Below are positions 9,726 through 30,818 of a stretch of 64,000 nucleotides of DNA, in pieces (position 1 is the stretch's first letter; the number at the start of each line of letters is the position of its first letter). Source of the stretch: Micromonospora polyrhachis (lineage in GTDB: Bacteria > Actinomycetota > Actinomycetes > Mycobacteriales > Micromonosporaceae). Under the pieces are notes generated by a model. It was not told where the DNA came from and did not search any database. It worked only from the letters and a program-made list of their open reading frames with translations. A program made the position numbers and the translations under genes. The stretch is from the NCBI RefSeq assembly GCF_014203835.1, contig NZ_JACHJW010000001.1, forward strand, positions 4,972,501 through 5,036,500, read 5' to 3'.

Positions 9726-9817
9726 ACCAGCACCACCGCACCTGGTGACGCCCGGTTGGGCGCTCGCCCGATCCCGCACGCCCGCATACCCCTAACAGCA
9801 CACCTCAGGAGGTTGTC

Positions 9818-10873: not shown

Positions 10874-10893
10874 CGTACGGGGGGAGACCCACC

Positions 10894-12066
10894 TTGTCCA
10901 CTGTAGATCAAGAGCTGCGGGTCGGCCTGGTCGGCTACGCGTTCATGGGTGCCGCGCACTCGCAGGCGTGGCGGACCGTGAACCGGGTCTACGACCTGCC
11001 GGTGCGAGCCCGGATGGCCCTCGTCTGCGGTCGGGACGCGGCGAAGGTGGCCGACGCCGCCGACCGACTCGGCTGGGACGGGTACACCACCGACTGGCGT
11101 GACCTGGTCGGCCGGGACGACATCGACGTCGTCGACGTCTGCACCCCCGGCGACAGCCATGCCGAGATCGCGATCGCGGCCCTGACGGCGGGCAAGCACG
11201 TCCTGTGCGAGAAGCCGCTGGCGAACACGGTCGCCGAGGCCCGAGCCATGGCCGCCGCCGCGACCACGGCCCAGGCGGCAGGGGTACGGTCCATGTGCGG
11301 GTTCAACTACCGCCGGGTGCCCGCGGTCACCATGATGCGTGACCTGGTCGCCGCCGGCCGGCTCGGGGTGATCCGGCACGTCCGGGCGGCCTACCTGCAG
11401 GACTGGATCGTCGACCCGCAGTATCCGCTGGTCTGGCGACTACAGAAGGACCGGGCGGGCTCCGGCGCGCTGGGCGACATCGGTGCGCACATCATCGACC
11501 TGACCCAGTTCGTCACCGGCCAGCGGATCACCGGTGTCAGCGCGATCACCGAGACCTTCGTCAAGGAACGACCGCTGCCGGACATGGTGACGACCGGGCT
11601 GGTCACCGTGGACGACGCCGCCGTCTTCGTCGCCCGGCTCGACGGCGGAGCGCTGGCCACGTACGAGGCCAGTCGGTTCGCCACCGGACGCAAGAACGCG
11701 CTCCGGGTCGAGATCAACGGATCTCTCGGTTCGCTCGTCTTCGACCTGGAACGCCTCAACGAGCTGGAGTTCCACGACGCCTCGGCACCCAGCACCGAGC
11801 AGGGATTCAACCGGATCCTGGTCACCGAATCCGACCACCCGTACCTGTCGGCATGGTGGCCGCCGGGGCACATCATCGGCTACGAGCACTCGTTCACCCA
11901 CCAGATGCGTGACTTCCTGGCGGCGATCGCCACCGGGACCGACCCGGCCCCTTCCTTCGCCGACGCGCTCCAGGTGCAACTGGTGCTGGACGCCGTCGAA
12001 CGCTCCGCCGCCCTCGGCTCGTCATGGGCGGAGGTGGAACCGGCCCTCACCACGGTGGCTGCATGA
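10894..12066 (+). CDS. Gfo/Idh/MocA-family NAD(P)-dependent sugar dehydrogenase
   Basis: The 390-residue protein has an N-terminal Rossmann fold (LRVGLVGYAFMGAAHSQAW), the conserved HVLCEKPLANTVAEA segment carrying the EKP motif near residue 105, and a C-terminal alpha/beta domain with GALGDIGAHIIDLTQFVTG (D and H of the active-site loop near 195-200). TTG at 10894 after GGGGGGAGA is chosen as the start; the frame stays open further upstream but that part lies inside the binding-protein gene. It is the last gene of the ROK/ABC operon and probably oxidises the imported sugar or cyclitol, inositol 2-dehydrogenase being one family member. Confidence 0.9.
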   Translation: MSTVDQELRVGLVGYAFMGAAHSQAWRTVNRVYDLPVRARMALVCGRDAAKVADAADRLGWDGYTTDWRDLVGRDDIDVVDVCTPGDSHAEIAIAALTAGKHVLCEKPLANTVAEARAMAAAATTAQAAGVRSMCGFNYRRVPAVTMMRDLVAAGRLGVIRHVRAAYLQDWIVDPQYPLVWRLQKDRAGSGALGDIGAHIIDLTQFVTGQRITGVSAITETFVKERPLPDMVTTGLVTVDDAAVFVARLDGGALATYEASRFATGRKNALRVEINGSLGSLVFDLERLNELEFHDASAPSTEQGFNRILVTESDHPYLSAWWPPGHIIGYEHSFTHQMRDFLAAIATGTDPAPSFADALQVQLVLDAVERSAALGSSWAEVEPALTTVAA

Positions 12067-12332: not shown

Positions 12333-13631
12333 ATGCGTACGGGTGTCTGGCTGGTGGGGGCGCGTGGCTCGGTGGCGACCACCAGCATCGTCGGAGCGCT
12401 CGCCCTGCGGGCCGGGCTGGCCGAGCCGACCGGCTGTGTCACCGAGCTGCCCGCGCTGCGGAGCGCGGCCCTGCCTGCCCTCGGCGACCTGGTCTTCGGT
12501 GGGCACGACGTGGTGGCGACTCCGCTGGTGAAGAAGGCGGAGGCACTGGCCGCGGCCGGAGTGTTGCCGCCCCGACTGGTGACCGCGCTCGCCGAGGAAC
12601 TGGCCGGGGTGGAGCGCGAGGTCCGGCCGGTGCCCACCGGCGGCCGGCAGGCCGGCACGATCGCCGCTATCACCGCCGACCTGACCGGATTCCGGGCGCG
12701 GCACGGTCTGGACCGGGTCGTGATGGTCAACGTCTCCACCACCGAACCGGTGCCGCCCACGCACCCGGGGCACGCCGATCTGGCTACGCTGACCGCCGTG
12801 CTGGAGGCCGGGCAGGCGGTGCTTCCGCCCAGTGCCGGGTACGCCTTCGCCGCCTTCACCGCCGGATGCGCCTACGTGGACTTCACGCCGTCGACCGGGG
12901 CGCGGCTGCCGGCGCTGGCCGAGTTGGCCGCTCGCGAGCGGCTGCCGTACGCCGGCCACGACGGCAAGACCGGCGAGACCCTGGTCAAGTCGGTGCTGGC
13001 ACCGATGTTCGCCATGCGAAACCTGCGGGTCCGCACCTGGTCGGGGGTGAACCTGCTCGGCGGCGGGGACGGCGCCAACCTGGCCGAGCCGGCGGCCAAC
13101 GCGGCAAAGGCAGCCAGCAAACAGCGGGTCCTCGGCGAGACGTTGGGCTACGTTCCGCAGGGCACCACCCGGATCGAGTACGTCGAGGACATCGGCGACT
13201 TCAAGACCGCCTGGGACCTGGTCACCTTCTCCGGTTTCCTGGGCATCCCGATGCGGATGGAGTTCACCTGGCACGGCTGTGATTCGGCGCTGGCCGCGCC
13301 GCTGGTGCTCGACCTGGCCCGGCTCACCGCCGCAGCACATGTGGCTGGTCGTACTGGCCCGCTGACCGAGTTGGGCTTCTTCTTCAAGGATCCGCTCGGT
13401 TCGGTGGCGGATTCCGGGGCCACCGCCGAAACGGAGGGCTTCGGGGGCGTCGCCGAAACCGGCGGCGGACACGCGCTGGCCGAGCAGTGGGCCGCGTTGC
13501 GTGGACTGGTCCGACGACTTGACGCCACCGTCGGTCGGGACGGTACGGGCCACACCGGAGATGCCTGCGGACGGGATGAAGCTGGCGATGCCGTCGGACG
13601 GGATGGAGCCGGCGATGCCATCGCTGCGTGA
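12333..13631 (+). CDS. Inositol-1-phosphate synthase family protein, first gene of an ebo-like cluster
   Basis: A 432-residue myo-inositol-1-phosphate synthase homologue. It starts MRTGVWLVGARGSVATTSIV, the NAD-binding loop. VVMVNVSTTEPVPP and the catalytic region YAGHDGKTGETLVKSVL, then FAMRNLRVRTWSGVNLLGGG and AANAAKAASKQRV, follow the family order. The enzyme would turn glucose 6-phosphate into inositol 1-phosphate through internal oxidation and reduction by bound NAD. An upstream frame exists but AGGAGGGAG selects ATG at 12333. The C-terminus is a tandem-repeat tail that overlaps the next gene. It occupies the place of EboD, the dehydroquinate-synthase-like cyclase of other ebo clusters. 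Confidence 0.88.
   Translation: MRTGVWLVGARGSVATTSIVGALALRAGLAEPTGCVTELPALRSAALPALGDLVFGGHDVVATPLVKKAEALAAAGVLPPRLVTALAEELAGVEREVRPVPTGGRQAGTIAAITADLTGFRARHGLDRVVMVNVSTTEPVPPTHPGHADLATLTAVLEAGQAVLPPSAGYAFAAFTAGCAYVDFTPSTGARLPALAELAARERLPYAGHDGKTGETLVKSVLAPMFAMRNLRVRTWSGVNLLGGGDGANLAEPAANAAKAASKQRVLGETLGYVPQGTTRIEYVEDIGDFKTAWDLVTFSGFLGIPMRMEFTWHGCDSALAAPLVLDLARLTAAAHVAGRTGPLTELGFFFKDPLGSVADSGATAETEGFGGVAETGGGHALAEQWAALRGLVRRLDATVGRDGTGHTGDACGRDEAGDAVGRDGAGDAIAA
13560..13626 (+). repeat. 27-base tandem repeat at the synthase/UbiA gene overlap
   Basis: The units 13560-13586 and 13587-13613 plus a partial third each contain GATGCC...GGACGGGATG. The array codes for the last residues of the synthase in one frame and offers four closely spaced ATG codons to the prenyltransferase gene in another. 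Confidence 0.8.
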
Positions 13632-14616
13632 CCTTGCCGAACTGGTCCGGGCACCGGCCGCCCTCTCCGTACCCGGGGACGTGCTGGCCGGTGCGGTCGC
13701 CGCCGGATGGGCATACCCGCTTGCCGGTTCCGCAGCCGAGCCGCCAGGCGGGCACCGCCTGGACCGGGCGGCCCGCGCCTCCGGTCTGGCCGGGGCGTCG
13801 GTGCTGCTCTACTGGGCCGGCATGGCGGCCAACGACTGGGCCGACCGTCGACTCGACGCGCTCGAACGGCCGGAACGGCCCATCCCCAGCGGCCGCGTCC
13901 ACCCGGCGACCGCGTTCGGCCTCTCCGCCGGCCTCACCGTGGCCGGCTTGGCGGCGGCTGGGCTCGCCGGTGGACGCCGGTCGCTGGCCGTGGCCGTGCC
14001 GCTGACCGGTGCGGTGTGGGCGTACGACCTGTGGGCCAAGAAGACAGCGGCCGGTCCAGCGGTGATGGCCGCCTGTCGCGGGCTGGACGTGCTGCTCGGC
14101 GCGAGCCTCGGCCAGCCACTGCGGGCCGTACCGGCGGCGGTGACCATAGCCGCCCACACCTACACGGTGACCGCGTTGTCCCGCCGCGAGGTGACCGGTG
14201 CCGACCGGTGGCTGCCGATGGCGACCCTGGCCGGCACGGCGGCGGTGGCCGGGGCAGCAACTGGGCCGGTGGGGGCCGAGACGAGAGTGGCCGCAGCGAG
14301 ATCGGCCGGGATGCGAGCGGTTGGGTCGGGGGCAGCGGGGGCCGGTCGAATCCGTCGTACCCGGCGCGACTGGCGAGGGCTGGTGCCAGCCGTACTGGCC
14401 GCCGGCTACCTCGCCCGCTACGGCCGGGCGCAGGCGCGGGCGATGGCCACCCCGGACGCGGCCCGAATCCGGACTGCGGTGGGGGCCGGCATCACCGGGC
14501 TGCCCGCCTTGCAGGGCGCGCTGATCGCCCGGGCGGGCGCGCCGCTGCTGGGGATGGTGGTGGCCGCCGCCGCACCGGTGGGGCGGCGGCTGGCCCGCTG
14601 GATGTCGCCTACCTGA
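13615..14616 (+). CDS. eboC: UbiA-family prenyltransferase, EboC-like
   Basis: A membrane prenyltransferase of about 333 residues and roughly eight helices. The first Asp-rich motif is NDWADRRLDALERPERP with PSGR (NDxxDxxxD), and the second region is YDLWAKKTAAGPAVMAACRG followed by LDVLLG. These bind the prenyl diphosphate through magnesium. Starts at 13561, 13576, 13588, 13603 and 13615 are all possible because of the tandem repeat; the last matches where homology to UbiA proteins begins. The neighbourhood (EboA, EboB, EboE, EboF) identifies it as EboC-like rather than a quinone enzyme. The acceptor is probably the cyclitol phosphate made by the preceding gene. Confidence 0.85.
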   Translation: MPSLRDLAELVRAPAALSVPGDVLAGAVAAGWAYPLAGSAAEPPGGHRLDRAARASGLAGASVLLYWAGMAANDWADRRLDALERPERPIPSGRVHPATAFGLSAGLTVAGLAAAGLAGGRRSLAVAVPLTGAVWAYDLWAKKTAAGPAVMAACRGLDVLLGASLGQPLRAVPAAVTIAAHTYTVTALSRREVTGADRWLPMATLAGTAAVAGAATGPVGAETRVAAARSAGMRAVGSGAAGAGRIRRTRRDWRGLVPAVLAAGYLARYGRAQARAMATPDAARIRTAVGAGITGLPALQGALIARAGAPLLGMVVAAAAPVGRRLARWMSPT

Positions 14617-14720
14617 TCCTCGACCTATCGAGGGCTACCGCTTTGATCAAGAACGTGGCAGTCTAGGCAAGAATATCGGGGAATGCGAATTCATCGTTTA
14701 TCCCACGGTGGAGGTGGCCG

Positions 14721-15614
14721 GTGACGAACATCCCCCGGTTCGGGTACGGCACGAACGGATTCGCCAACCACCGGCTGGACGACGCGTTGGCGGTGCTGGC
14801 CGACCTTGGCTACCAGGGGATCGCGCTGACCCTCGACCACGACCATCTCGACCCCTACGAACCGGACCTCGCCGCCCGGGTGACCGCCGTGGGCCGACGC
14901 CTCGCCGACCTCGACCTCGGGCTGGTGATCGAGACCGGGGCCCGCTACCTGCTCGACCCGTGGCGTAAGCACTCGCCCACCCTGCTCGACGACGATCCGG
15001 CCCGCCGGGTCGACTTCCTCCGCCGGGCGGTGGCGATCGGGGCCGACCTCGGGGCCGAGGCGATCTCCTTCTGGGCCGGCATACGGCCGCCACACGTCGA
15101 CGAGGCCACCGCCTGGGACCGGCTGGTCGCCGGCTGCGCCGAGGTGCTGGCGGTGGCCGACCGGGCCGGGGCCACCCTCGGCTTCGAGCCGGAACCGGGC
15201 ATGCTGGTGCCGGACATCGCCGGCTGGCAGCGGCTGCACGCCGCCCTCGGCGCGCCGTGCAACCTTGGCATCACCCTCGACATCGGGCACTGCCGGTGCC
15301 TGGAGCCACAGCCGGTCCCGGACTGCGTCAGGCAGGTCGCCCCCTATCTGGTCAACGTGCAGATCGAGGACATGCGTCGGGGCGTACACGAGCATCTCGA
15401 ATTCGGCGACGGGGAGATCGACTTCCCGCCGGTGCTGCGGGCCCTGGCCGACGCCGACTACCGAGGGCTGATCGCCGTCGAGCTGCCCCGGCACTCCCAC
15501 GCCGCCCCGGCTGTCGCCCGACGCTCGCTGGACTTCCTCCGTGCCGCCGCCGACCGGGCCGGCACGAACCCCACCGTGGCCACCACCGTGGCTCCCGCCG
15601 GGAAGGAGCGCTGA
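14721..15614 (+). CDS. Sugar phosphate isomerase/epimerase-like TIM barrel
   Basis: A 297-residue xylose-isomerase-like (AP endonuclease family 2) barrel, starting GTG after GGAGGTGGCC. Putative metal ligands lie in GFEPEPGMLV, LGITLDIGHC, NVQIEDM with the nearby HEHLEF, and IAVELPRHSH. Enzymes of this fold isomerise or epimerise sugars, cyclitols and keto acids. A 104-base gap separates it from the UbiA gene, the only gap in the cluster. It contains TTGATC and a TAGGCA box 15 bases apart, so an internal promoter is possible. Its stop overlaps the EboA start (TGATG). Confidence 0.85.
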   Translation: MTNIPRFGYGTNGFANHRLDDALAVLADLGYQGIALTLDHDHLDPYEPDLAARVTAVGRRLADLDLGLVIETGARYLLDPWRKHSPTLLDDDPARRVDFLRRAVAIGADLGAEAISFWAGIRPPHVDEATAWDRLVAGCAEVLAVADRAGATLGFEPEPGMLVPDIAGWQRLHAALGAPCNLGITLDIGHCRCLEPQPVPDCVRQVAPYLVNVQIEDMRRGVHEHLEFGDGEIDFPPVLRALADADYRGLIAVELPRHSHAAPAVARRSLDFLRAAADRAGTNPTVATTVAPAGKER

Positions 15615-16300
15615 TGGGACCGGACCGACTTCGAGCCGCGCTGGAGGGCGTACCCGATCCGGGGTGGCTGACCGAGGCGCTGCGCCGCGTCGCGGCCGAG
15701 CCTGCCACGCTCCCGCGGATCTTCGCCACCGTTGGCCGCAACTGCGGTCGGGGCCAGCTACCGGACGCACCGGGCTGGACCGCCGACGACGCCGCGCGGG
15801 TGCTGCTGCTGACCGCGCTGCCGGCCGACGCCGTGGCCGCCCAGGTCGAGACCCTCTACCGGTACGGCGACGCGGCGGAGAAGCGGGCGGTGCTGCGCGC
15901 CCTGCCGATGCTGCCGCTGGATGCCGAGGCCCTGCCCCTGCTGCACGACGCGATCCGCAGCAACGACACCCGGCTGCTCACCGCCGCGCTCGGCCCGTAC
16001 GCCCGACACCTCGACGACGCGGCCTGGCGGCAGGCGGTGCTCAAGTGCGTCTTCCTCGGCGTACCGCTGTCGGCGGTGGACGCGCTCGCCGAGCGGGCCG
16101 ACACCGAGCTGGCCGTGATGCTGGCCGGGCTGGCCGACGAGCGGCATGCCGCCGGTCGGAGCATCCCCGCTGACGCCACCGCACTGCTCGACCGGCTCAC
16201 CCACGCTTCCGTCCGGCCCGCGTCCGGCCCCGACCAGTCCGCCCACGGACCCGACCAGGTTACCCATGGTCCCGCCCGGTCCACCTCGAAGGAGGCGTGA
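15614..16300 (+). CDS. eboA: EboA domain-containing protein
   Basis: The 228-residue alpha-helical protein has the features of EboA: ATLPRIFATVGRNCGRGQLP near residue 33, DAARVLLLTALPAD, then a helical-repeat stretch RYGDAAEKRAVLRALPMLPL and HDAIRSNDTRLLTAALGPYA. No enzymatic motif is seen. EboA proteins are encoded only in ebo-type operons and have no assigned reaction. The C-terminal tail holds three 7-residue repeats (GPDQSAH, GPDQVTH, GPARST). It is coupled by TGATG overlaps on both sides. Confidence 0.85.
   Translation: MGPDRLRAALEGVPDPGWLTEALRRVAAEPATLPRIFATVGRNCGRGQLPDAPGWTADDAARVLLLTALPADAVAAQVETLYRYGDAAEKRAVLRALPMLPLDAEALPLLHDAIRSNDTRLLTAALGPYARHLDDAAWRQAVLKCVFLGVPLSAVDALAERADTELAVMLAGLADERHAAGRSIPADATALLDRLTHASVRPASGPDQSAHGPDQVTHGPARSTSKEA
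16226..16285 (+). repeat. 21-base tandem repeat in the eboA 3' end
   Basis: Three diverged 21-base units (16226, 16247 and 16268) code for GPDQSAH, GPDQVTH and GPARST, just before the stop. The tail lies outside the conserved EboA domain. Confidence 0.65.
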
Positions 16301-17163
16301 TGCGCATTTTCGACCCGCACATCCACATGACCTCGCGGACCACCGACGACTACGAGCGGATGGCCGCCGCCGGGATCCGGGCCCTGGTCGAGCCGGCGTT
16401 CTGGTTGGGGCAGCCGCGCACCAGCGCCGCCACCTTCGTCGACTACTTCGACTCGCTGCTCGGCTGGGAACCGTTCCGGGCCGGCCAGTTCGGCATCCGA
16501 CACCACGCCACGATCGCGCTCAACCCCAAGGAGGCCAACGACCCGCGCTGCCGCGAGGTGCTCGAACTGCTGCCGCGCTACCTCGACAAGGACGGGGTGG
16601 TGGCGGTCGGCGAGATCGGGTACGACTCGATGACCCCCGAGGAGGACGAGGCCTTCGCCGCCCAGCTCGCCCTGGCGGTGGCCCATGAACTGCCCGCCCT
16701 GGTGCACACCCCGCACCGGGACAAGGCCCGGGGCACACAGCGCACCCTGGCGGTGGTGGCCGAGTCCGGCCTCGACCCGGGGCGGGTGCTGGTCGACCAC
16801 CTCAACGAGGTGACCGTGGAGCTGGTCCGGGACAGCGGCTGCTGGCTGGGCTTCTCCATCTATCCGGACACCAAGATGTCCCCGCCCCGGATGGTGGAGA
16901 TCCTGCGCCGCTGGGGCACGGAACGGATGCTGGTCAACTCGGCCGCCGACTGGGGTCGTTCCGATCCGCTGCTCACCCGGGCGACCGCCGAGGCGATGCT
17001 GCTGGGCGGCTTCAGCGACGACGAGGTCGACCGGGTGCTGTGGCGCAACCCGGTCGAGTTCTATGCCCAGTCCGGTCGGCTCGACCTGGCCGACCTCGAT
17101 CTGGCCGGGCTCGACCTGGCACCGACCTTCGAGGGGAACTCGATCCTGCGGGGAGGCAGCTGA
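16300..17163 (+). CDS. eboB: TatD-family metal-dependent hydrolase, EboB
   Basis: A 287-residue amidohydrolase-type barrel. The N-terminal HxH motif is in FDPHIHMTS, the glutamate is in VGEIGYDS, the later histidines are in LVHTPHRD and LVDHLNEV, and the C-terminal Asp is in NSAADWGRSDP. TatD enzymes are divalent-metal phosphoesterases or nucleases; the EboB branch is restricted to ebo operons and its substrate is unknown. ATG at 16300 sits in TGATG after GGAGGC; a GTG one codon earlier is also possible. The C-terminal RLDLADLDLAGLDLAP is a 15-base tandem triplication. Confidence 0.9.
   Translation: MRIFDPHIHMTSRTTDDYERMAAAGIRALVEPAFWLGQPRTSAATFVDYFDSLLGWEPFRAGQFGIRHHATIALNPKEANDPRCREVLELLPRYLDKDGVVAVGEIGYDSMTPEEDEAFAAQLALAVAHELPALVHTPHRDKARGTQRTLAVVAESGLDPGRVLVDHLNEVTVELVRDSGCWLGFSIYPDTKMSPPRMVEILRRWGTERMLVNSAADWGRSDPLLTRATAEAMLLGGFSDDEVDRVLWRNPVEFYAQSGRLDLADLDLAGLDLAPTFEGNSILRGGS
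17080..17124 (+). repeat. 15-base tandem triplication in the eboB 3' end
   Basis: Three units at 17080, 17095 and 17110 code for LDLAD, LDLAG and LDLAP and extend the C-terminus beyond the TatD fold. Confidence 0.65.
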
Positions 17164-18356
17164 TGCGGCTGCGGCACCGCGACGGCCAGACGGTCCACCT
17201 GAGCTACTGCACCAATGTGCACCCGGCCGAGGACCTGGCTGGCATCGTCGGCCAGCTCGACGCGTACGCGGTGCCGATCCGGCGGTGGCTCGACTCCGAC
17301 GTGCTCGGGTTGGGGTTGTGGTTGTCGGCCCCGGTCGCCACCGCGCTGGCCGCCGACCCGGCCGCCCGGCGACGGCTTCGGGCCGAGCTGGACGGGCGCG
17401 GGCTGGAAGTGGTGACCCTCAACGGCTTTCCCTACCGGTCGTTCCAGGCACCGGTGGTCAAGCACGCCGTCTACCAGCCGGACTGGACCACCCGGGAGCG
17501 GCTGGACTACACGCTGGACCTGGCCCGGGTCCTGGTCGACCTGCTGCCCGACGATGCGGCCCGGGGCTCGATCTCCACCCTGCCACTGGCCTGGCGGGAC
17601 CCGTGGGACGCGGACCGGGCCGCCGAGGCGGACCGGCGGTTGGCCGAGCTGGCGACCGGGTTGGCCGAGCTGCATCGACAAACCGGGCGGGTGATTCGGG
17701 TCGGCTTCGAGCCGGAGCCGGGCTGCGTGGTGGAGAGCACCACACAGGCGGCCGAGCGGCTGTCCAAAATAGACATCAGGTGGCTGGGAATCTGCCTCGA
17801 CCTGGCGCATCTGGCCTGTGCCTGGGAGGAGCCGGCCGCCGCGCTGGCCCGGCTGCACGCGGCCGGACTGCCGGTGGTCAAGGTCCAGGTCTCCGCCGCG
17901 CTCCAGGCCCTCGACCCGGTCGCCGCCGCCGACCACCTTCGGGGGTACGTCGAACCCCGCTTCCTGCACCAGACCCGGGCCGCGGCCTGCGCCGACGCGG
18001 TCGAACCGGCCGACCCGGCGCACGCCGCCGACGACCTGGACGCGGCGCTGGCCGACGGGCTGCCCGGGGCCTGGCGGGTGCACTACCACGTGCCGGTGCA
18101 CGCCCAGCCCGATCCGCCACTCAGCTCGACCAGCCCGGTGCTGCGCGCCGCGCTCCGGGAACTCTTCGACGGTCCGGTCGCCGGCTGCGACCACCTCGAC
18201 GTCGAGACGTACACCTGGGGGGTGCTGCCCACCTCGCGCCGGCCCCGCTCCGACGTGGAGTTGGCGGCCGGCATCGCGGCCGAGTTGGCGTACGCCCGCG
18301 CCGAACTGGGCGCGCTCGGGCTCGCGCCAGCCGCGCCGAGCGAGGTGTGGTCATGA
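17163..18356 (+). CDS. eboE: Metabolite traffic protein EboE
   Basis: A 397-residue TIM-barrel protein. The opening YCTNVHPAEDLAGIVGQLD, then VVTLNGFPYRSFQ near residue 85, HAVYQPDWTTRERLDYTLDL, GFEPEPGCV near 183, GICLDLAHLACAW near 205, and YHVPVH with DVETYTWGVLP near the end follow the EboE pattern. The fold is xylose-isomerase-like with metal-site residues (E, D, H). In cyanobacteria the ebo operon is needed to move a scytonemin precursor to the periplasm; no reaction has been shown for EboE. TGATG overlap with EboB upstream, ATGA overlap with the phosphodiesterase gene downstream. Confidence 0.88.
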   Translation: MRLRHRDGQTVHLSYCTNVHPAEDLAGIVGQLDAYAVPIRRWLDSDVLGLGLWLSAPVATALAADPAARRRLRAELDGRGLEVVTLNGFPYRSFQAPVVKHAVYQPDWTTRERLDYTLDLARVLVDLLPDDAARGSISTLPLAWRDPWDADRAAEADRRLAELATGLAELHRQTGRVIRVGFEPEPGCVVESTTQAAERLSKIDIRWLGICLDLAHLACAWEEPAAALARLHAAGLPVVKVQVSAALQALDPVAAADHLRGYVEPRFLHQTRAAACADAVEPADPAHAADDLDAALADGLPGAWRVHYHVPVHAQPDPPLSSTSPVLRAALRELFDGPVAGCDHLDVETYTWGVLPTSRRPRSDVELAAGIAAELAYARAELGALGLAPAAPSEVWS

Positions 18357-19759
18357 CCCCGCCGGTCGTGACCCCACTGGTGGTGATCGACGTGGTGGGC
18401 CTGACCCCTCGGCTGCTGGCCCAGATGCCCCGGCTGCGGGCGGTGGCCGAGGCCGGGTTCCAGGCGGAGCTGGGTACGGTGCTGCCGGCGGTCACCTGCT
18501 CGGTGCAGTCCACCTTCCTGACCGGCGAACCGCCGGCCGGGCACGGCATCGTCGGCAACGGCTGGTACTTCCGCGACGTCGGGGACGTGCTGCTGTGGCG
18601 GCAGCACAACGCCCTGGTCGGCGGCGAGAAGCTGTGGCAGGCGGCCCGGCGGGTGTGCCCGGACTACACGGTCGCCAACGTCTGCTGGTGGTACGCGATG
18701 GGCGCGGACGTGAACTGGACCGTCACGCCCCGGCCGATCTACTACGCCGACGGGCGCAAGGAGCCGGACTGCTACACCGATCCACCCGAGTTGCACGACG
18801 CGCTGACCGCCGCGCTCGGCACCTTTCCGCTGTTCACGTACTGGGGGCCGGGGGCGGGGCTGCCGTCGTCGGAGTGGATCGCCGACGCGGCGGTCGAGAT
18901 CATGGCGGCCCACCGGCCGGACCTGACCCTGGTCTACCTTCCGCACCTCGACTACGACCTGCAACGCTTCGGCCCGTCCTCGCCGCAGGCGGCGGCCGCC
19001 GCGACCGCGCTGGACGGAGTGCTCGGTCCGCTGCTGGACGCCGCCTCGGCCCGGGGCGCGACCGTGGTGGTCCTCTCCGAGTACGGCATCACCGACGTCT
19101 CCCGGCCGGTCGACGTCAACCGGCTGCTGCGGAGCGAGGGCTGGCTGCGGGTCCACACCCAGGACGGCATGGAATACCTGGACCCGTGGACCTCCCGGGC
19201 CTTCGCCGTCGCCGACCACCAGGTGGCCCACGTCTACGTACCGGATCCGGCCGACGTGCCGGCGGTGGCGAAGCTCTGTGCCGGCCTGGCCGGGGTGGCC
19301 GAGGTGCTCGACCGGGCGGGCCAGGCCCGGTACGGCCTGGACCATCCCCGTTCCGGCGAGCTGGTGCTGGTCGCCGAGCCGGATGCCTGGTTCACCTACT
19401 ACTACTGGCTGGACGACGCGGCGGCCCCCGACTTCGCCCGGCTGGTGGAGATCCACCGCAAACCCGGGTACGACCCGGCGGAGCTGTTCTTCGACCCGGC
19501 AGACCCGGGCGCAGCCAAGCGGCGGGCGGCGGTGGCACTGGTCCGTAAGAAGATCGGCCTGCGTTACCTGATGAACGTGGTGGGCTTGGACGCCGGGGCG
19601 CGGGCCGTCCGGGGCTCGCACGGACGGTTGCCGGCCGACCCGCTGGACGGGCCGGTGCTGCTCTGTTCCGACCGGTCCGTGGCCCGGGACCGGCTCGCCG
19701 CCGTGGATGTGAAGCAGACGCTGCTCGACCTGGCTGGACTGAATGGGGAGAAGGCATGA
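18353..19759 (+). CDS. eboF: Nucleotide pyrophosphatase/phosphodiesterase family protein, EboF-like
   Basis: A 468-residue alkaline-phosphatase superfamily enzyme of the NPP type. The nucleophile Thr lies in LPAVTCSVQSTFLTGEPPAG, with metal ligands in VVIDVVG, VYLPHLDYDLQRFG, LSEYGI and DHQVAHVYV. No signal peptide is present, so it acts in the cytoplasm. In ebo operons the phosphatase is often called EboF. Here it could remove or cleave the phosphate of a prenylated cyclitol phosphate, which is inference from neighbours. Confidence 0.88.
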   Translation: MTPPVVTPLVVIDVVGLTPRLLAQMPRLRAVAEAGFQAELGTVLPAVTCSVQSTFLTGEPPAGHGIVGNGWYFRDVGDVLLWRQHNALVGGEKLWQAARRVCPDYTVANVCWWYAMGADVNWTVTPRPIYYADGRKEPDCYTDPPELHDALTAALGTFPLFTYWGPGAGLPSSEWIADAAVEIMAAHRPDLTLVYLPHLDYDLQRFGPSSPQAAAAATALDGVLGPLLDAASARGATVVVLSEYGITDVSRPVDVNRLLRSEGWLRVHTQDGMEYLDPWTSRAFAVADHQVAHVYVPDPADVPAVAKLCAGLAGVAEVLDRAGQARYGLDHPRSGELVLVAEPDAWFTYYYWLDDAAAPDFARLVEIHRKPGYDPAELFFDPADPGAAKRRAAVALVRKKIGLRYLMNVVGLDAGARAVRGSHGRLPADPLDGPVLLCSDRSVARDRLAAVDVKQTLLDLAGLNGEKA

Positions 19760-20829
19760 CGGTGGAGATGGCGGCCCCGCTGGGCCTCGCTGAGGACCTG
19801 CGGTCCCGGTTCGACGCGCGGCTCGCCGCGTTCCTGGACCGGCAGGATCCGGACTGGCCGGACAGCACGCCCCGGGACGTCTTCACCACCCTGCGCCGGT
19901 TCGTGCTCGCCGGCGGCAAGCGACTCCGGCCGTCGTTCTGCTACTGGGGCTGGCGGGCCGCCGGGGGACCGGACGGTACGCCTATCGTGACCGCCGCCGC
20001 CGCGCTGGAACTCTTCCACGCGTTCGCGCTGATCCACGACGACATCATGGACGGCAGTGACCAGCGTCGGGGGGAGCCGTCCGTACATCGGCGCTTCACC
20101 GACGTGCACGCCCGGTCGCGGTGGCGCGGCGACTCGGCCGCGTACGGGCGCAGCACCGCCCTGCTCTGCGGCGACCTCTGTGCCGCCTGGGCGGACCAGA
20201 TGTTCCACGAGTGCGGGTTGGAGACCGAGCAGTTGCTTCGGGGCTACCGGATGTTTTCGGCGATGCGTACCGAGGTGATCGCCGGGCAGTATCTGGATCT
20301 GGTCTCCGGGGTGGACGAAGCGTCGGTCGAGAGCGCGCTCACGGTGATCCGGCTCAAGTCGGGCCGCTACACCATCACTCGGCCGTTGCAGATCGGCGCG
20401 ACGCTGGCCGGTGCCGGTGCGGAGTTGGTCGACGCACTGGCCGACTTCGGCGATCCGTTGGGCGACGCCTTCCAACTCCGTGACGACGTACTTGGGGTCT
20501 TCGGGGATCCAACGGTGACCGGCAAGTCGACCCTGGACGACCTGCGGGAGGGCAAGCCCACGGTGATGATGGGCCTGGCCCGGGCCGCCGCCGACCAGCG
20601 GCAGGCTGCCCGACTGACCGTGCTCTTCGGCAATCCCTACCTCGACGCGGCCGGCGCGGCGGAGTTGCGCGGGATCATCATGGACACCGGCGCGCTGGAC
20701 CGGATCGAGCAGATGATCAGGGTACGCAGCGACGCCGCGCTCTCCGCGTTGGCCGAAGCGCCGTTGTCGGACGAGGCGCGGGAGGTGCTGGCCGCGCTGG
20801 CCGCCGAGGCGGTCGACCGACACGTCTGA
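19756..20829 (+). CDS. Trans-polyprenyl diphosphate synthase
   Basis: A 357-residue class I isoprenyl diphosphate synthase. It has GGKRLRPSFCYWGW near residue 54, the first Asp-rich motif DDIMDGSDQRRG near 95, and the second, QLRDDVLGVFGDP, near 243 followed by GKSTLDDLREGKPTVMM. It condenses isopentenyl diphosphate with allylic diphosphates; two bulky residues before the first motif (F-A-L-I-H) do not settle chain length. It is coupled to the phosphodiesterase gene by ATGA and is the last gene of the cluster, presumably making the prenyl donor for the UbiA enzyme. Confidence 0.93.
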   Translation: MTVEMAAPLGLAEDLRSRFDARLAAFLDRQDPDWPDSTPRDVFTTLRRFVLAGGKRLRPSFCYWGWRAAGGPDGTPIVTAAAALELFHAFALIHDDIMDGSDQRRGEPSVHRRFTDVHARSRWRGDSAAYGRSTALLCGDLCAAWADQMFHECGLETEQLLRGYRMFSAMRTEVIAGQYLDLVSGVDEASVESALTVIRLKSGRYTITRPLQIGATLAGAGAELVDALADFGDPLGDAFQLRDDVLGVFGDPTVTGKSTLDDLREGKPTVMMGLARAAADQRQAARLTVLFGNPYLDAAGAAELRGIIMDTGALDRIEQMIRVRSDAALSALAEAPLSDEAREVLAALAAEAVDRHV

Positions 20830-24460: not shown

Positions 24461-24643
24461 CGATGTAAACCGACGGCGCGGTAGTCCATCGACAGGTGAC
24501 CTCCCCATCCGGTGCCCCCACCGGCCGGTGGTCACGGACAACCCGGGGAGGACCCCGAAGCTTCGACCTCCACCGTTACGGCAACCGGCGCGACGGCGCG
24601 CGCCCTGCCTGGCAACCCCCAGTCAGGAAGGGAAGGCACCACT

Positions 24644-27484
24644 GTGTCCACTACGGAATCCCGAGCCGGACGACGATGGCAGGCCAGTAGCGCAGCCCTG
24701 CTGCTGGTCGCGGCGACCGTCAGTACGGCCATCGGCACCGCTCCCGCTCCCGCCCAGGCACACCCGATCAACGCAGCCGATTTCCAGCAGGTCGAGCTGG
24801 CCCGTGGCGTGTCCGACATGGGCGAGCCGATGTCCCTGGCCGTCCTGCCCGACCGGTCGGTCCTGCACACCGCGCGTAACGGCACGCTGCGCCGTACCGA
24901 CGCGGCCGGCAACACCGCCGTGCTCGGCACCCTGCCGGTCTACAGCCACGACGAGGAGGGCCTGCAGGGCGTCGGCGTCGACCCCGGCTTCGCCACCAAC
25001 CGGCAGATCTACCTCTACTACGCGCCACCACTGTCCACACCGGCCGGTGACGCGCCCGTCACCGGGACCGACTGGTCGGCCTGGCAGGGCGTCAACCGGC
25101 TGGCCCGGTTCACCCTCAACGCCGACTTCACCCTCAACATGGGCAGCCAGGTCACCGTCCTCGACGTACCGGCCGACCGGGGCATGTGCTGCCACGTCGG
25201 CGGGGACATCGACTTCGACGCGGCCGGTAACCTTTACCTCTCCACCGGGGACGACTCCAACCCGTTCGACTCGGCCGGCTACGCGCCCATCGACGAGCGC
25301 AGCAACCGCAACCCGGCCTACGACGCCCAGCGCAGCTCCGGCAACACCAACGACCTACGCGGCAAGATCCTGCGGATAAAGGTCAACGCCAACGGGACGT
25401 ACTCGATCCCGGCGGGCAACCTCTTCGCGCCCGGCACCGCCAGGACACGGCCGGAAATCTACGCGATGGGCTTCCGCAACCCGTTCCGGATGAGCGTCGA
25501 CAAGACCACCGGCATCGTCTACGTCGGCGACTACGGCCCGGACGCCGGCACCACCAGCGCCAATCGGGGACCCGCCGGGCAGGTCGAGTTCAACCGGGTC
25601 ACCTCGCCCGGCAACTACGGCTGGCCGTACTGCACCGGCACCAACACCAGCAGCGAGACGTACAACGAGTGGGACTTCGCCACCGGCACCGGCGGCGCGA
25701 AGTACAACTGCACCGGCGGGCCGACCAACAACTCGTTCCGCAACACCGGCCTGACCACCCTCCCGGCCGCCCGGCCCTCCTGGATCCGGTACGGCGGGGA
25801 CGCCGGCACACCCCCCGAGTTCGGTGGCGGTTCCGAGTCACCGATGGGCGGCCCGGTCTACCGCTACGACCCGAACCTCAATTCGGCGACCAAGTTCCCG
25901 TCCTCGTTCGACGGGCAGTTCTTCGCCACCGAGTTCGGCCGAGGCTGGATCAAACCGATCCACGTCAACACCGACGGCTCACCCGGCACCATCGACAGCT
26001 TCCCGTGGGTCGGCAAGCAGGTGATGGACTCGGCGTTCGGCCCGGACGGGGCGTATTACGTGCTCGACTACGGCACCGGCTACTTCAACGGGGACGAGAA
26101 CTCGGCGCTCTACCGGTTCGACCATGTGGGTGGGGGCAACCGGGCACCGACCGCAGCCGCCTCGGCGAACCGGACCTCCGGCCCGGCCCCGCTGACCGTC
26201 GCCTTCTCCTCGGTCGGCTCGTCCGACCCGGAGGGCAGCGCGTTGACGTACGCCTGGAACTTCGGCGACGGCACGACTTCGACGGCGGCCAACCCGACGA
26301 AGACCTACCACACCAACGGCAGCTACACCGTGACGTTGACCGTGACCGACCCGGAGGGGGCCACCGGCAGCTCCAGCGTCACCATCACGGTCGGCAACAC
26401 CGCCCCGACGGTCTCGGTCAGCGCCCCCGGCAACGGCCAGCTCTTCTCCTTCGGTGACACCGTGCCGTTCCAGATCACCGTCACCGACCCGGAGGACGGC
26501 ACCATCGACTGCACCAAGGTCAAGATGACCTACGTGCTGGGCCACGACAGCCACGGCCACCAGATCACCTCCAAAACCGGCTGCTCCGGTGAGATCGCCA
26601 TCCCGGTCGACGGTGAACACGACGACGCGGCAAACATCTTCGCGATCTTCGACGCCGAGTACACCGACGCCGGCGGACTGACCACACACACCCAGCAGAC
26701 CCTGCAACCCCGACACCGACAGGCCGAACACTTCAAGACCTCCGCCGGCGTCAACCTCTTCGACAAGACGCCGGCCGAGGGCGGAAAGACCGTCGGTGAC
26801 ATTCACAACGGCGACTGGATCGCGTTCGAGCCGTACCGGCTGGGCAACGCGACCTCATTCACCGCGCGGGTGTCGTCCGCCGGAATCGGCGGCACCCTAC
26901 AGATCCGGGCCGGTTCGGTGACCGGCACCGTACTCGGGTCGGCCACCGTGCCGGTGACCGGTGGTTGGGAGACCTTCACCGAGGTCACCGGCGCGATCTC
27001 CGGCGCACCGGCCGGCACCACCACCCTCTACCTGACCTTCGCGGGCGGGGCGGGCGCGCTCTACGACGTGGACGCGTTCACCCTCAACACCGGTGGTCCG
27101 CGTACCGGTCCGGTGGTGGGGTTGGCGGGCAAGTGCCTGGATGTGGCGGGTGCGGCCACGGCGGACGGTACGAAGGTGCAGCTCTACACGTGTAACGGGA
27201 CGGGTGCGCAGCAGTGGACGGTTGCCGCCGGGTCCGGTCCGGTGAAGGCACTGGGCAAGTGCCTGGACGTGTCGGCCGGTGGCACCGCCGACGGCACGAA
27301 GGTCCAACTGTGGACGTGCAACGGCAGCGGGGCGCAGAACTGGGCACCCCAGGCCAACGGCACGGTGGTCAATCCGCAGTCCGGTAGGTGTCTGGACGTC
27401 TCCGGTAACAACTCCGCCGACGGTACGCAGATCCACATCTGGACCTGCCACACCGGCGCCAACCAGAAGTGGACCCTGCCCTGA
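24644..27484 (+). CDS. Secreted sugar (glucose/sorbosone-type) dehydrogenase with PKD, CBM6-like and ricin-B lectin domains
   Basis: A 946-residue secreted protein. After a signal peptide (cleavage near PAQAHP), residues 50-490 form a six-bladed quinoprotein-type propeller: DEEGLQGVGVDPGF, CCHVGGDIDFDAAGNLY, EIYAMGFRNPFRMSVD and GNYGWPYCTG. A PKD domain follows near 505-590 (YAWNFGDGTTS), then a linker, a CBM6-like module (GDIHNGDWIAFEPY) and a ricin-B trefoil at about 825-946 ([23 protein letters not shown]). It would oxidise sugars or bind polysaccharide outside the cell. GTG at 24644 after GGAAGG is preferred to an upstream extension that lacks signal-peptide character. Confidence 0.85.
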   Translation: MSTTESRAGRRWQASSAALLLVAATVSTAIGTAPAPAQAHPINAADFQQVELARGVSDMGEPMSLAVLPDRSVLHTARNGTLRRTDAAGNTAVLGTLPVYSHDEEGLQGVGVDPGFATNRQIYLYYAPPLSTPAGDAPVTGTDWSAWQGVNRLARFTLNADFTLNMGSQVTVLDVPADRGMCCHVGGDIDFDAAGNLYLSTGDDSNPFDSAGYAPIDERSNRNPAYDAQRSSGNTNDLRGKILRIKVNANGTYSIPAGNLFAPGTARTRPEIYAMGFRNPFRMSVDKTTGIVYVGDYGPDAGTTSANRGPAGQVEFNRVTSPGNYGWPYCTGTNTSSETYNEWDFATGTGGAKYNCTGGPTNNSFRNTGLTTLPAARPSWIRYGGDAGTPPEFGGGSESPMGGPVYRYDPNLNSATKFPSSFDGQFFATEFGRGWIKPIHVNTDGSPGTIDSFPWVGKQVMDSAFGPDGAYYVLDYGTGYFNGDENSALYRFDHVGGGNRAPTAAASANRTSGPAPLTVAFSSVGSSDPEGSALTYAWNFGDGTTSTAANPTKTYHTNGSYTVTLTVTDPEGATGSSSVTITVGNTAPTVSVSAPGNGQLFSFGDTVPFQITVTDPEDGTIDCTKVKMTYVLGHDSHGHQITSKTGCSGEIAIPVDGEHDDAANIFAIFDAEYTDAGGLTTHTQQTLQPRHRQAEHFKTSAGVNLFDKTPAEGGKTVGDIHNGDWIAFEPYRLGNATSFTARVSSAGIGGTLQIRAGSVTGTVLGSATVPVTGGWETFTEVTGAISGAPAGTTTLYLTFAGGAGALYDVDAFTLNTGGPRTGPVVGLAGKCLDVAGAATADGTKVQLYTCNGTGAQQWTVAAGSGPVKALGKCLDVSAGGTADGTKVQLWTCNGSGAQNWAPQANGTVVNPQSGRCLDVSGNNSADGTQIHIWTCHTGANQKWTLP
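27092..27484 (+). repeat. Lectin-module direct repeat, copy 1
   Basis: The ricin-B coding region is near-identical at DNA level to 29326-29724 at the end of the next gene. From GCAAGTGCCTGGACGTGTCG onward, most differences are synonymous. Such a pair can recombine and would delete the gene between. Confidence 0.85.
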
Positions 27485-27485
27485 T

Positions 27486-27539: not shown

Positions 27540-27561
27540 CACCGTCGATAGGAGAGCAACC

Positions 27562-29724: not shown

Positions 29725-29735
29725 CGCAGCGCGGT

Positions 29736-29788: not shown

Positions 29789-29810
29789 TCAGGGAGGGAG
29801 AAGAGGGAGT

Positions 29811-30818
29811 ATGGCGCGACCCGTCACGCTGTTCACCGGCCAGTGGGCCGACCTACCGTTCGAGGAGGTGTGCCGGCTGGCCTCCGAGTGGGGCTACGAC
29901 GGACTGGAGATCGCCTGCTGGGGGGACCACTTCGAGGTCGACAAGGCGCTCGCCGACGACACGTACGTCGACCGCAAGCGGGAGACCCTGGCCAAGTACC
30001 ACCTCCAGGTCTTCGCGATCTCCAACCATCTGGTCGGGCAGGCAGTCTGCGACCACCCGATCGACGAACGGCACCAGGGCATCCTGCCGGCCCGGATCTG
30101 GGGCGACGGCGAACCCGAGGGGGTACGCCAACGCGCGGCAGCCGAGATCAAGGACACCGCACGGGCGGCGGCGAAGCTCGGCGTACGGACCGTCGTCGGC
30201 TTCACCGGCTCGTCGATCTGGCACACCCTGGCCATGTTCCCGCCGGTCCCGCCCTCGATGATCGAGAAGGGGTATCGGGACTTCGCTGACCGGTGGAACC
30301 CCATCCTCGACGTCTTCGACTCCGTCGGCGTACGGTTCGCCCACGAGGTGCACCCCAGCGAGATCGCGTACGACTACTGGACCACCCGGCGCACCCTGGA
30401 GGCGATCGGGCACCGGCCGGCGTTCGGGCTGAACTGGGATCCCTCGCACTTCGTCTGGCAGGAACTCGATCCGGTCAACTTCATCCTGGAGTTCGCCGAC
30501 CGGATCTACCACGTCGACTGCAAGGACGCGAAGGTGCGTACCGGGGACGGGCGGCGGGGGCGGCTCGCCTCCCACCTGCCCTGGGCCGACCTGCGGCGCG
30601 GCTGGGACTTCGTCTCCACCGGGCACGGGGACGTGCCGTGGGAGGACTGCTTCCGGGCGCTCAACGCCATCGGGTACGACGGCCCGATCTCGATCGAATG
30701 GGAGGACGCCGGCATGGACCGGCTGGTGGGTGCCCCCGAGGCGCTGCGGTTCGTCCGTGGACTCGCCTTCGACGCGCCGACCGCTGCCTTCGACGCCGCC
30801 TTCACCAGCGAGAAGTGA
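29811..30818 (+). CDS. Sugar phosphate isomerase/epimerase (xylose-isomerase-like TIM barrel)
   Basis: A 335-residue cytoplasmic barrel starting [20 protein letters not shown]. The metal-binding positions are visible as [15 protein letters not shown] (Glu), [11 protein letters not shown] (Asp/His), YHVDCKDAK (Asp) and [11 protein letters not shown] (Glu). Such enzymes work with ThuA/DUF1080 and Gfo/Idh/MocA partners in keto-sugar catabolism. GGGAGGGAG precedes the ATG. The stop codon lies inside a 30-base tandem repeat. Confidence 0.9.

What the first reader, a model, noticed from the sequence alone, without database searches (positions are those of the whole stretch)
12333..20829. Ebo-type cluster with an inositol-phosphate synthase in place of EboD
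EboA, EboB (TatD), UbiA (EboC), EboE and an NPP phosphodiesterase (EboF-like) lie in one coupled operon. The usual EboD (dehydroquinate-synthase-like cyclase) is absent; a myo-inositol-1-phosphate synthase homologue heads the operon instead and a dedicated polyprenyl diphosphate synthase closes it. Both EboD and the synthase turn a sugar phosphate into a ring, so the swap may be functional. The gene set predicts glucose 6-phosphate to cyclitol phosphate, prenylation by UbiA, isomerisation and dephosphorylation, that is, a polyprenyl cyclitol. In cyanobacteria and Pseudomonas ebo clusters serve export or secreted-metabolite functions; the product in actinobacteria is not established to my knowledge.
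Basis: partly seen in the sequence, partly recalled or inferred. Interest (0 to 1): 0.88.

Follow-up and report, generated by a model that had tools for sequence, protein, structure and literature searches.

The report
Inositol-synthase variant of the ebo cluster
This actinobacterium carries a version of the little-understood "ebo" gene cluster in which the usual ring-making enzyme is replaced by an inositol-phosphate synthase; the same version recurs in many actinobacteria and in some salt-loving archaea, which suggests that the cluster makes a lipid built on a sugar-derived ring that has yet to be identified.

Summary
EboD is absent. The MIPS is not the housekeeping Ino1, which lies 1.7 Mb away in another clade; it resembles archaeal MIPS and keeps the catalytic residues. 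The swap is a conserved architecture: MIPS lies beside 26 of 28 EboA matches in a phylum sample and 32 of 51 plasmid EboB records, including three haloarchaea and a gemmatimonad. EboB and EboF trees force at least two exchanges between EboD and MIPS types, but that rests on the gemmatimonad locus. I found no description in print. New here: the operon sits in a sugar-oxidation locus (Gfo/Idh, ThuA/3-ketodisaccharide hydrolase, GSDH-like, ABC importer), a linkage seen in three actinobacterial families and in none of 20 control windows; and EboF has lost at least three canonical phosphodiesterase metal ligands, so the proposed dephosphorylation is doubtful. Best reading: a prenylated inositol-derived membrane lipid, made by a DGGGP-synthase-like UbiA, serving the export or envelope role proposed for ebo. 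The product is inferred, not shown.

The parts
12333..13631 (+). Inositol-phosphate synthase (MIPS) of archaeal type, 432 aa, in place of EboD
   Evidence: Pfam NAD_binding_5 and Inos-1-P_synth; best solved relative Archaeoglobus MIPS 1u1i, 224 bits, against 40 bits for the Ino1 entry 1gr0; catalytic residues kept
13615..14616 (+). UbiA-superfamily prenyltransferase (EboC position; SCO3242 family); start could be as early as 13561
   Evidence: NF045897 345.1 bits, cut-off 260; NF035940 EboC 127 bits, cut-off 250; NDxxDxxxD motif invariant in 18 of 18; model closest to DGGGP synthase
14721..15614 (+).
   Evidence: AP_endonuc_2 124.9 bits; found in 31 of 32 Micromonosporaceae loci and in most other MIPS-type loci
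15614..16300 (+). EboA
   Evidence: NF035938 162.8 bits, cut-off 50; predicted mostly helical, pLDDT 92.5
16297..17163 (+). EboB, TatD-like metallohydrolase; metal-binding motifs intact
   Evidence: TatD_DNase 44.9 bits; HxH, E, H, H and D positions aligned in bacteria and haloarchaea (that these bind metal is recalled)
17163..18356 (+). EboE, xylose-isomerase-like TIM barrel
   Evidence: NF035939 414.7 bits, cut-off 250
18353..19759 (+). EboF, alkaline-phosphatase superfamily (NPP branch) with altered metal site
   Evidence: Phosphodiest 216 bits; D-H pair reads E-Y and the histidine of D...H is replaced in every EboF aligned
19756..20829 (+). Short-chain polyprenyl diphosphate synthase, an add-on frequent in Micromonosporaceae
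   Evidence: polyprenyl_synt 164.4 bits; best solved relatives GGPP synthase 3lk5 and FPP synthase 8f8f; 25 of 32 Micromonosporaceae loci
5942..7120 (+). ROK regulator that starts the upstream sugar operon
   Evidence: ROK 180.7 bits
7117..10873 (+). Sugar ABC importer: ATPase 7117-8658, permease 8655-9725, substrate-binding protein 9818-10873
   Evidence: my reading of the ORFs, no family scan; homologues of permease and substrate-binding protein beside the cluster in other genomes
10903..12066 (+). Gfo/Idh/MocA oxidoreductase 266 bp upstream of MIPS, linked to the cluster across families
   Evidence: Pfam; levoglucosan dehydrogenase model 343.3 bits, below its cut-off of 650; linkage counts
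24512..27484 (+). Sorbosone-dehydrogenase-like (GSDH) protein with PKD, CBM6 and ricin-B domains, probably secreted
   Evidence: Pfam; linked in other loci; secretion inferred from the N-terminus
27556..29724 (+). ThuA plus 3-keto-disaccharide hydrolase protein with CBM6 and ricin-B domains, probably secreted
   Evidence: Pfam; linked in other loci; secretion inferred from the N-terminus
29817..30818 (+). TIM-barrel sugar isomerase
   Evidence: AP_endonuc_2 151.5 bits; linked in other loci

Best explanation
The operon is a distinct, widespread architecture of the ebo cluster in which the sugar-phosphate cyclase EboD is replaced by an archaeal-type inositol-phosphate synthase accompanied by a second TIM-barrel isomerase. 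It most likely turns glucose 6-phosphate into inositol 3-phosphate (inferred from intact catalytic residues). The TIM-barrel enzymes then adjust the ring (inferred), and a UbiA enzyme resembling digeranylgeranylglyceryl-phosphate (DGGGP) synthase attaches a C15-C20 prenyl chain to the polyol or polyol phosphate, probably as an ether (inferred from motif and fold). EboB (metallohydrolase with intact motifs), EboF (phosphatase-superfamily protein with a rewired site) and EboA (helical, perhaps a scaffold) finish or handle the lipid (inferred). The product would be a prenylated inositol-derived membrane lipid that does the job ebo products are thought to do elsewhere: moving or holding compounds at the cell envelope, here often in the context of sugar uptake and oxidation outside the membrane. 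Shown by sequence: gene content, conservation, residue conservation, neighbourhood, and, resting on one locus, repeated cyclase exchange. Not shown: any enzyme activity, the product, the physiological role.
For: MIPS beside 26 of 28 EboA matches, which lie in 26 of 396 phylum genomes (and L038, L040, and the window itself), in 30 of 32 Micromonosporaceae loci and in 19 of 20 loci of a second family. On plasmids 32 of 51 EboB records have MIPS within 5 kb, among them three haloarchaea and Gemmatirosa (loci). The 16 EboD-type records have no MIPS match; 8 of the 16 were viewed. The 37 cluster MIPS rows (32 without duplicates) form one clade (100/98), the 23 Ino1 rows (22 without a duplicate) another (100/100). 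Eight active-site positions are invariant in 32 of 32 cluster MIPS. With Gemmatirosa, EboB and EboF trees force at least two exchanges between EboD and MIPS types. UbiA motif invariant in 18 of 18; model best matched by DGGGP synthase 7bpu and 6m31. Sugar-oxidation genes in 23 of 32, 13 of 17 and 18 of 20 loci of three families against 0 of 20 control windows.
Against: No activity or product is known for any gene of this operon. EboF lacks at least three ligands expected of a phosphatase of its family, so a simple phosphate-removal step has no obvious enzyme. MIPS homologues can make other rings: Ari2 makes a five-membered cyclitol phosphate (PMC11188666, passages). The UbiA substrate cannot be read from sequence and the fold match is loose (TM 0.60, rmsd 5.6, 14% identity). 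Repeated exchange rests on Gemmatirosa: without it EboF needs one change and EboB two, of which one is forced. Some clusters have no MIPS beside them: L184, L194, L253 and Haladaptatus L256; one locus, L091, has the MIPS and sugar genes but no ebo genes. The active-site residues are equally invariant in the housekeeping Ino1 rows, so they show a working MIPS, not a special one.
Confidence: 0.48

Rival explanations
1. The MIPS homologue is a carbocyclase with another substrate or ring size (as Ari2 is), so that the ring is a non-inositol cyclitol closer to the presumed EboD product.
For: EboD and MIPS occupy the same gene context, so both may aim at similar products; Ari2, a MIPS orthologue, makes a five-membered cyclitol phosphate from fructose 6-phosphate (PMC11188666, passages); the cluster MIPS is a separate clade with positions such as W6, G238 and W313 that are invariant in it and in the cluster-linked haloarchaeal and Gemmatirosa MIPS but absent from the six other rows compared.
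Against: It scores far closer to Archaeoglobus MIPS (224 bits) than to the five-membered-cyclitol synthase 6k96 (44 bits); all active-site residues tested are the usual ones.
Confidence: 0.2
2. The operon belongs mainly to sugar oxidation and uptake: it makes a membrane-bound cofactor or carrier for secreted sugar dehydrogenases and 3-keto-glycoside breakdown, and export of secondary metabolites is a side use in some lineages.
For: Gfo/Idh, GSDH-like, ThuA/3-keto-disaccharide hydrolase, TIM isomerase and sugar ABC genes lie beside the cluster in three actinobacterial families, on either side of it, 166 of 173 gene placements on the same strand; Gemmatirosa has Gfo and TIM genes; by annotation Natronococcus has a PQQ-dependent sugar dehydrogenase, Halocatena ThuA, Haladaptatus Gfo and DUF1080; two EboD-type loci also show such genes by annotation, two Gfo in Ketogulonicigenium and a PQQ-dependent dehydrogenase in Salipiger.
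Against: None of the five cluster-bearing Streptosporangiaceae loci examined shows these four genes (two of the five are short contigs); the one of six that does, L091, has MIPS but no ebo genes. Only 4 of 8 other actinobacterial loci show any. None of 8 EboD-type plasmid loci shows them at E 1e-20. Halobaculum shows none by annotation. Some Streptomyces clusters lie beside ScyD/ScyE, multicopper oxidase or peptide-synthetase genes instead. Synteny within families is partly common descent.
Confidence: 0.2
3. The MIPS is simply the genome's inositol supply for phosphatidylinositol or mycothiol and sits here by chance.
For: It carries the family's domains and active-site residues; one genome, G296, shows no other MIPS.
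Against: A second MIPS of housekeeping type exists in this genome; 24 of 25 other genomes with the cluster have a further MIPS, in separate clades; the linkage is conserved across phyla and domains.
Confidence: 0.04

Closest known systems
ebo operon, eboABCDEF (eustigmatophyte and bacterial operon; PMC5133447)
   Same: EboA, EboB, UbiA at the EboC position, EboE and EboF in one operon; the proposed product is an isoprenoid-cyclitol compound
   Different: No EboD; MIPS plus a second TIM-barrel protein instead; UbiA meets the SCO3242 family and stays below the EboC cut-off; often linked to a sugar-oxidation locus
Archaeal MIPS (Archaeoglobus fulgidus Ino1, 1u1i)
   Same: Same family, best match among solved structures, equivalent lysines and asparagine
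   Different: Operon context with UbiA, EboB, EboE and EboF; activity unknown
SCO3242/SCO3243 of Streptomyces coelicolor, counted with the CDA cluster (PMC3610822)
   Same: Listed there as 'Putative transferase' and 'Myo-inositol phosphate synthase'; SCO3242 gives its name to the NCBI family that the window's UbiA meets
   Different: The passages seen do not name them as ebo genes and give no function beyond the annotation; I did not see the S. coelicolor sequence itself
Digeranylgeranylglyceryl-phosphate (DGGGP) synthase
   Same: UbiA superfamily, Asp-rich motif, best fold match
   Different: 14% identity in the fold alignment; acceptor unknown; cyclitol gene context
BE-40644 pathway (as described in PMC5133447)
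   Same: A cyclitol joined to a farnesyl chain by a UbiA-superfamily enzyme
   Different: Cyclitol from an EEVS-type cyclase, not MIPS; not compared here by sequence

Membership tests
ebo operon | EboA present | tested here: met
   NF035938 162.8 bits, cut-off 50; the full-length EboA_family model stays below its cut-off (83.6 against 320)
ebo operon | EboE present | tested here: met
   NF035939 414.7 bits, cut-off 250
ebo operon | EboB and EboF present | tested here: met
   Pfam hits and homology to EboB and EboF of EboD-type loci, e.g. 59% and 54% in Azospirillum
ebo operon | EboC (UbiA-like) | tested here: inconclusive
   UbiA in the operon, but NF035940 EboC 127 bits against a cut-off of 250; meets the SCO3242 family instead
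ebo operon | EboD sugar-phosphate cyclase | tested here: not met
   No EboD in the operon and none in 25 phylum loci searched with four EboD queries and AroB; hence called a variant, not a standard member
MIPS (EC 5.5.1.4) | Both MIPS domains and active-site residues | tested here: met
MIPS (EC 5.5.1.4) | Conversion of glucose 6-phosphate to inositol 3-phosphate | not testable with these tools
   No assay possible
Actinobacterial housekeeping INO1 (TIGR03450) | Equivalog score | tested here: not met
   36.3 bits against a cut-off of 638
NPP phosphodiesterase / alkaline-phosphatase superfamily | Canonical two-metal ligands | tested here: not met
   Nucleophile Thr kept, but the His of D...H and the D-H pair are replaced; which residues bind metal is recalled, not taken from a call; the first Asp ligand lies outside the alignment
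UbiA prenyltransferase | First Asp-rich motif NDxxDxxxD | tested here: met
   Invariant in 18 of 18 sequences

The most novel reading that the evidence does not exclude
Bacteria and haloarchaea share a cross-domain pathway for a new class of lipid, a prenyl ether of inositol or an inositol isomer, whose ring can come from either of two unrelated cyclases (EboD or MIPS) that have replaced each other. The lipid acts as a membrane carrier or cofactor that couples the cytoplasm to oxidation reactions outside the membrane, which would unite scytonemin assembly in cyanobacteria with sugar oxidation in actinobacteria.
Probability: 0.23. Interest if true: 0.88.

Novelty: new variant of a known kind. 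Interest (0 to 1): 0.64.

Why it matters
The ebo product was unknown when the cluster was named in 2016, and no paper I opened identifies it. A variant that starts from inositol phosphate narrows the chemistry: it points to a definite precursor that can be labelled and supplied, and to candidate UbiA acceptors that can be tested. Two unrelated ring-forming enzymes in one conserved gene context argue that the pathway needs a cyclitol as such. The presence in streptomycetes, including a MIPS and transferase pair annotated with the CDA cluster of Streptomyces coelicolor, puts the question into a tractable laboratory organism; the presence in haloarchaea makes it a cross-domain question.

Tried and rejected
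Housekeeping MIPS: rejected. EboD elsewhere in the genome: no strong candidate, though no EboD query was run on the whole genome. EboF as an ordinary phosphodiesterase: rejected as the default reading. Polyprenyl synthase as core gene: rejected. Fold of EboA: the model is good (pLDDT 92.5) but no solved structure matches significantly (best E 0.40; several weak matches are designed HEAT-like repeats). Sigma-70 promoter scan: 0 sites, and 2 terminator-like sites against 1.8 in shuffles, uninformative.

Literature: ten searches showed no description of MIPS in an ebo cluster. I saw the listings (partial lists) and opened seven papers in part. The library lacks most subscription journals and preprints, supplements were not available, and figure 3 of PMC9235831, which shows Saccharomonospora loci, could not be seen. 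PMC6457490 was searched for five terms and held none.

Rows dropped: for the EboA structure alignment, loci with frame errors or odd lengths were left out (16 sequences used); for UbiA three of 21 picked loci gave no clean frame and one a short one (18 rows with the window); for the residue count, five duplicate rows of the MIPS set were left out (32 kept of 37); the 80 named loci were used in the neighbour count only for six Streptosporangiaceae. The 20 control windows were set at round coordinates that I chose, one per genome, in genomes that carry the cluster; they are not random draws.


Full report
What is there. Window 12333-20829 holds eight genes on the + strand: MIPS 12333-13631, UbiA from 13615 (or 13561) to 14616, a TIM-barrel protein 14721-15614, EboA 15614-16300, EboB 16297-17163, EboE 17163-18356, EboF 18353-19759 and a polyprenyl diphosphate synthase 19756-20829. 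Family scans confirm each. Apart from a 104-bp gap before 14721 the genes overlap.

The MIPS is not the housekeeping enzyme. The genome (7.15 Mb, one contig) has two MIPS genes: the window's and one at 3241461, 1.7 Mb away, which I read as the usual actinobacterial Ino1. The window's MIPS scores 36 bits against the actinobacterial INO1 model, whose cut-off is 638; among solved structures it is closest to Archaeoglobus fulgidus MIPS, 224 bits, against 40 for the Ino1 entry 1gr0 and 44 for the five-membered-cyclitol synthase 6k96. Of 25 other genomes that carry the cluster, 24 have more than one MIPS; one (G296) has only the cluster's. In a tree of 71 rows, the 37 cluster MIPS rows (five of them duplicates) form one clade (support 100/98) and 23 Ino1 rows (one duplicate) another (100/100); MIPS of haloarchaea, Gemmatirosa, Hymenobacter, Roseomonas and Runella, and the second copies of three genomes of one family (f18), lie on the cluster's side of the long branch but outside the cluster clade. 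Labels were given by the best-matching query and agree with where the genes lie. Eight active-site positions, including the equivalents of Archaeoglobus N255, K274, K278, K306 and K367, are invariant in 32 of 32 cluster MIPS and equally in 22 of 22 Ino1 rows. That these residues are catalytic is recalled; entries mutated at some of them are visible.

Is the linkage conserved? The phylum sample has 28 EboA matches; MIPS is adjacent in 23 of the 25 fetched and in the other three, all of the window's family, so in 26 of 28. The two without are L184, a second copy in a genome with a MIPS-type copy, and L194, which looks broken. None of the 25 has an EboD by four EboD queries and AroB. In the second family 19 of 20 fetched loci are of MIPS type. 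In Micromonosporaceae 30 of 32 loci have MIPS; the two without, L062 and L066, are cut by contig ends. TIM2 is found in 31 of 32 of these; in the other sets it is missing from L190, L194 and L250, and from the named locus L094. Of the 80 named loci found with the MIPS as query (the best 80 of 373, so chosen by MIPS), 72 also show EboB, seven end soon after MIPS and UbiA, and one, L091, has MIPS without ebo genes.

Beyond actinobacteria. A plasmid census with EboB finds 51 records, all listed. MIPS lies within 5 kb in 32: 25 of 27 Streptomyces, 2 Embleya, 1 Nonomuraea, Halocatena, Halobaculum, Natronococcus and Gemmatirosa (all 44 MIPS records listed in 115). Two Streptomyces records hold only an EboB-EboE-EboF remnant. 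Haladaptatus has the other genes without MIPS beside them. The remaining 16 records contain no MIPS match; I viewed 8 of these 16, one per genus (Azospirillum, Ketogulonicigenium, Mycetohabitans, Salipiger, Roseivivax, Aureibacter, Gloeothece, Deinococcus), and each has a '3-dehydroquinate synthase', the EboD type; the Gloeothece stretch shows only that gene and EboB. The haloarchaeal clusters hold MIPS, EboF-like, EboB-like, UbiA and two TIM-barrel genes, with no EboA annotated or matched. Gemmatirosa combines MIPS and TIM2 with an EboG-like gene.

Did the swap happen more than once? In EboB and EboF trees with both types (24 and 23 rows) the well-supported branches force two changes between EboD and MIPS labels (the earlier run gave three for the MIPS label because Haladaptatus was counted as a third kind). 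Gemmatirosa's EboB pairs with that of EboD-type Deinococcus at 100/100, yet its cyclase is a MIPS. The result rests on that locus: without it EboF needs only one change (98/98) and EboB two, of which one is forced. Its MIPS branch is long and its place in the MIPS tree unsure. Transfer of single genes could also explain the pattern. Either way two unrelated ring-forming enzymes serve in one conserved gene context.

The enzymes. UbiA: the motif NDxxDxxxD is invariant in 18 of 18; it meets the SCO3242 family model and falls below the EboC cut-off; the predicted model (pLDDT 86.7) is best matched by DGGGP synthase structures (E 1.2e-4, TM 0.60/0.69, rmsd 5.6, 14% identity), a loose but consistent match, and sequence search gives only weak hits to DGGGP and chlorophyll synthases (E 0.015). 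DGGGP synthase prenylates a polyol-phosphate ether (recalled), which is why I favour an ether on a cyclitol or its phosphate; this is inference. EboB keeps the metal motifs of its superfamily in bacteria and haloarchaea. EboE, TIM2 and most of the haloarchaeal TIM proteins share conserved acidic and histidine positions; L218 72-1127 departs from them. EboF is unusual: aligned to phosphonoacetate hydrolase it keeps the threonine that is mutated in entry 3t02, but the histidine of the D...H motif is replaced and the D-H pair reads E-Y; E-Y, and no histidine four residues after the Asp, hold in all 21 EboF aligned and all 10, MIPS and EboD types and haloarchaea included. EboA is predicted as a mostly helical protein without a significant match. 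The polyprenyl synthase is closest to GGPP and FPP synthases; it occurs in 25 of 32 Micromonosporaceae loci, while of 25 phylum loci two show a weak match and of 20 loci of the second family none.

The neighbourhood. Upstream, on the same strand, lie a ROK regulator, a sugar ABC importer and a Gfo/Idh/MocA oxidoreductase (5942-12066). Downstream, after an amidase-like gene, lie a GSDH-like protein (24512-27484), a ThuA/3-keto-disaccharide hydrolase protein (27556-29724) and a TIM-barrel isomerase (29817-30818). At E 1e-20, homologues of Gfo, GSDH, ThuA or this TIM protein occur in 23 of 32 Micromonosporaceae loci, 13 of 17 loci of family f5 (taken as Streptomycetaceae), 18 of 20 of the second family and 4 of 8 other actinobacterial loci, against 0 of 8 EboD-type plasmid loci and 0 of 20 control windows. 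Of six Streptosporangiaceae loci only one shows them, and that is L091, which has MIPS but no ebo genes; so 0 of 5 cluster loci there. The order differs between families: GSDH and ThuA lie upstream in f5 and on either side in Micromonosporaceae, so this is not only frozen synteny. Beyond actinobacteria similar genes appear by homology, annotation or Pfam near the Gemmatirosa, Halocatena, Natronococcus and Haladaptatus clusters but not Halobaculum; at E 1e-20 only Gemmatirosa (Gfo, TIM) and Haladaptatus (Gfo) match. Two EboD-type loci have two Gfo genes or a PQQ-dependent dehydrogenase by annotation. On two Streptomyces plasmids a 'ScyD/ScyE family protein' lies just upstream of MIPS and a multicopper oxidase downstream, which recalls the cyanobacterial scytonemin locus.

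What was known. PMC5133447 (abstract, part 1 of section 12, sections 17 and 18, and passages) named the operon, proposed an isoprenoid-cyclitol product, noted operons without EboD in some draft genomes and, in Actinobacteria, EboA entries fused to a xylose-isomerase-like part; the word inositol does not occur in its main text. PMC6282210 (passages) gives the export role in scytonemin synthesis and the nematode phenotype in Pseudomonas. PMC9235831 (passages) reports the cluster in Saccharomonospora and farnesylation by relatives of EboC from marine bacteria. PMC3610822 and PMC3897704 (passages) list SCO3243, the first also SCO3242, among secondary-metabolism genes. RefSeq names for the pieces exist. 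None of the ten literature searches showed the MIPS variant described.

Verdict. A real, widespread variant of a known but unexplained cluster. The replacement of EboD by MIPS is strongly supported; repeated exchange is supported by one locus; the chemistry is a reasoned hypothesis; the product and role are unknown.

Noticed in passing
window 5942-12066 and 24512-30818: A sugar-import and sugar-oxidation locus (ROK, ABC importer, Gfo/Idh, GSDH-like, ThuA/3-keto-disaccharide hydrolase, TIM isomerase) flanks the operon on both sides.
   Followed up: yes
L091: Nonomuraea turkmeniaca has a close relative of the cluster MIPS with GSDH, ThuA and TIM genes nearby but no ebo genes, as if MIPS could belong to the sugar locus on its own.
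   Followed up: partly
L212 3221-4423 and 13939-15447; L264 3820-5019 and 13982-15460: ScyD/ScyE-family genes just upstream of MIPS and multicopper oxidases downstream on Streptomyces plasmids, parallel to the cyanobacterial scytonemin locus.
   Followed up: partly
L220 4932-11101 and L221 4977-11089: A different cluster around MIPS in Hymenobacter and Roseomonas: MIPS, Gfo/Idh, YcaO-like protein and others, a possible unrelated cyclitol pathway.
   Followed up: no
L184 10701-14808: Second ebo copy in one genome: UbiA, TIM2, EboA, EboB, EboE and EboF without MIPS, preceded by what reads as an FAD-dependent oxidoreductase and an inositol-monophosphatase-like gene.
   Followed up: partly
L315 8004-11234 and L316 8004-11440: Streptomyces plasmids with only an EboB-EboE-EboF remnant.
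   Followed up: partly
L263 1-3000 and 12461-18855: On a Streptomyces plasmid the cluster lies beside an adenylation-domain (peptide-synthetase) gene and phosphopantetheinyl transferases, which recalls the SCO3242/SCO3243 pair counted with the CDA cluster.
   Followed up: no
L126 and L128: Micromonospora chalcea has two MIPS-ebo loci on one contig about 45 kb apart in opposite orientation, with the same match values, possibly an assembly effect.
   Followed up: no
window 20922-23084: Amidase_2, peptidoglycan-binding and Rv2525c-like glycoside-hydrolase domains in one protein directly downstream of the operon.
   Followed up: no
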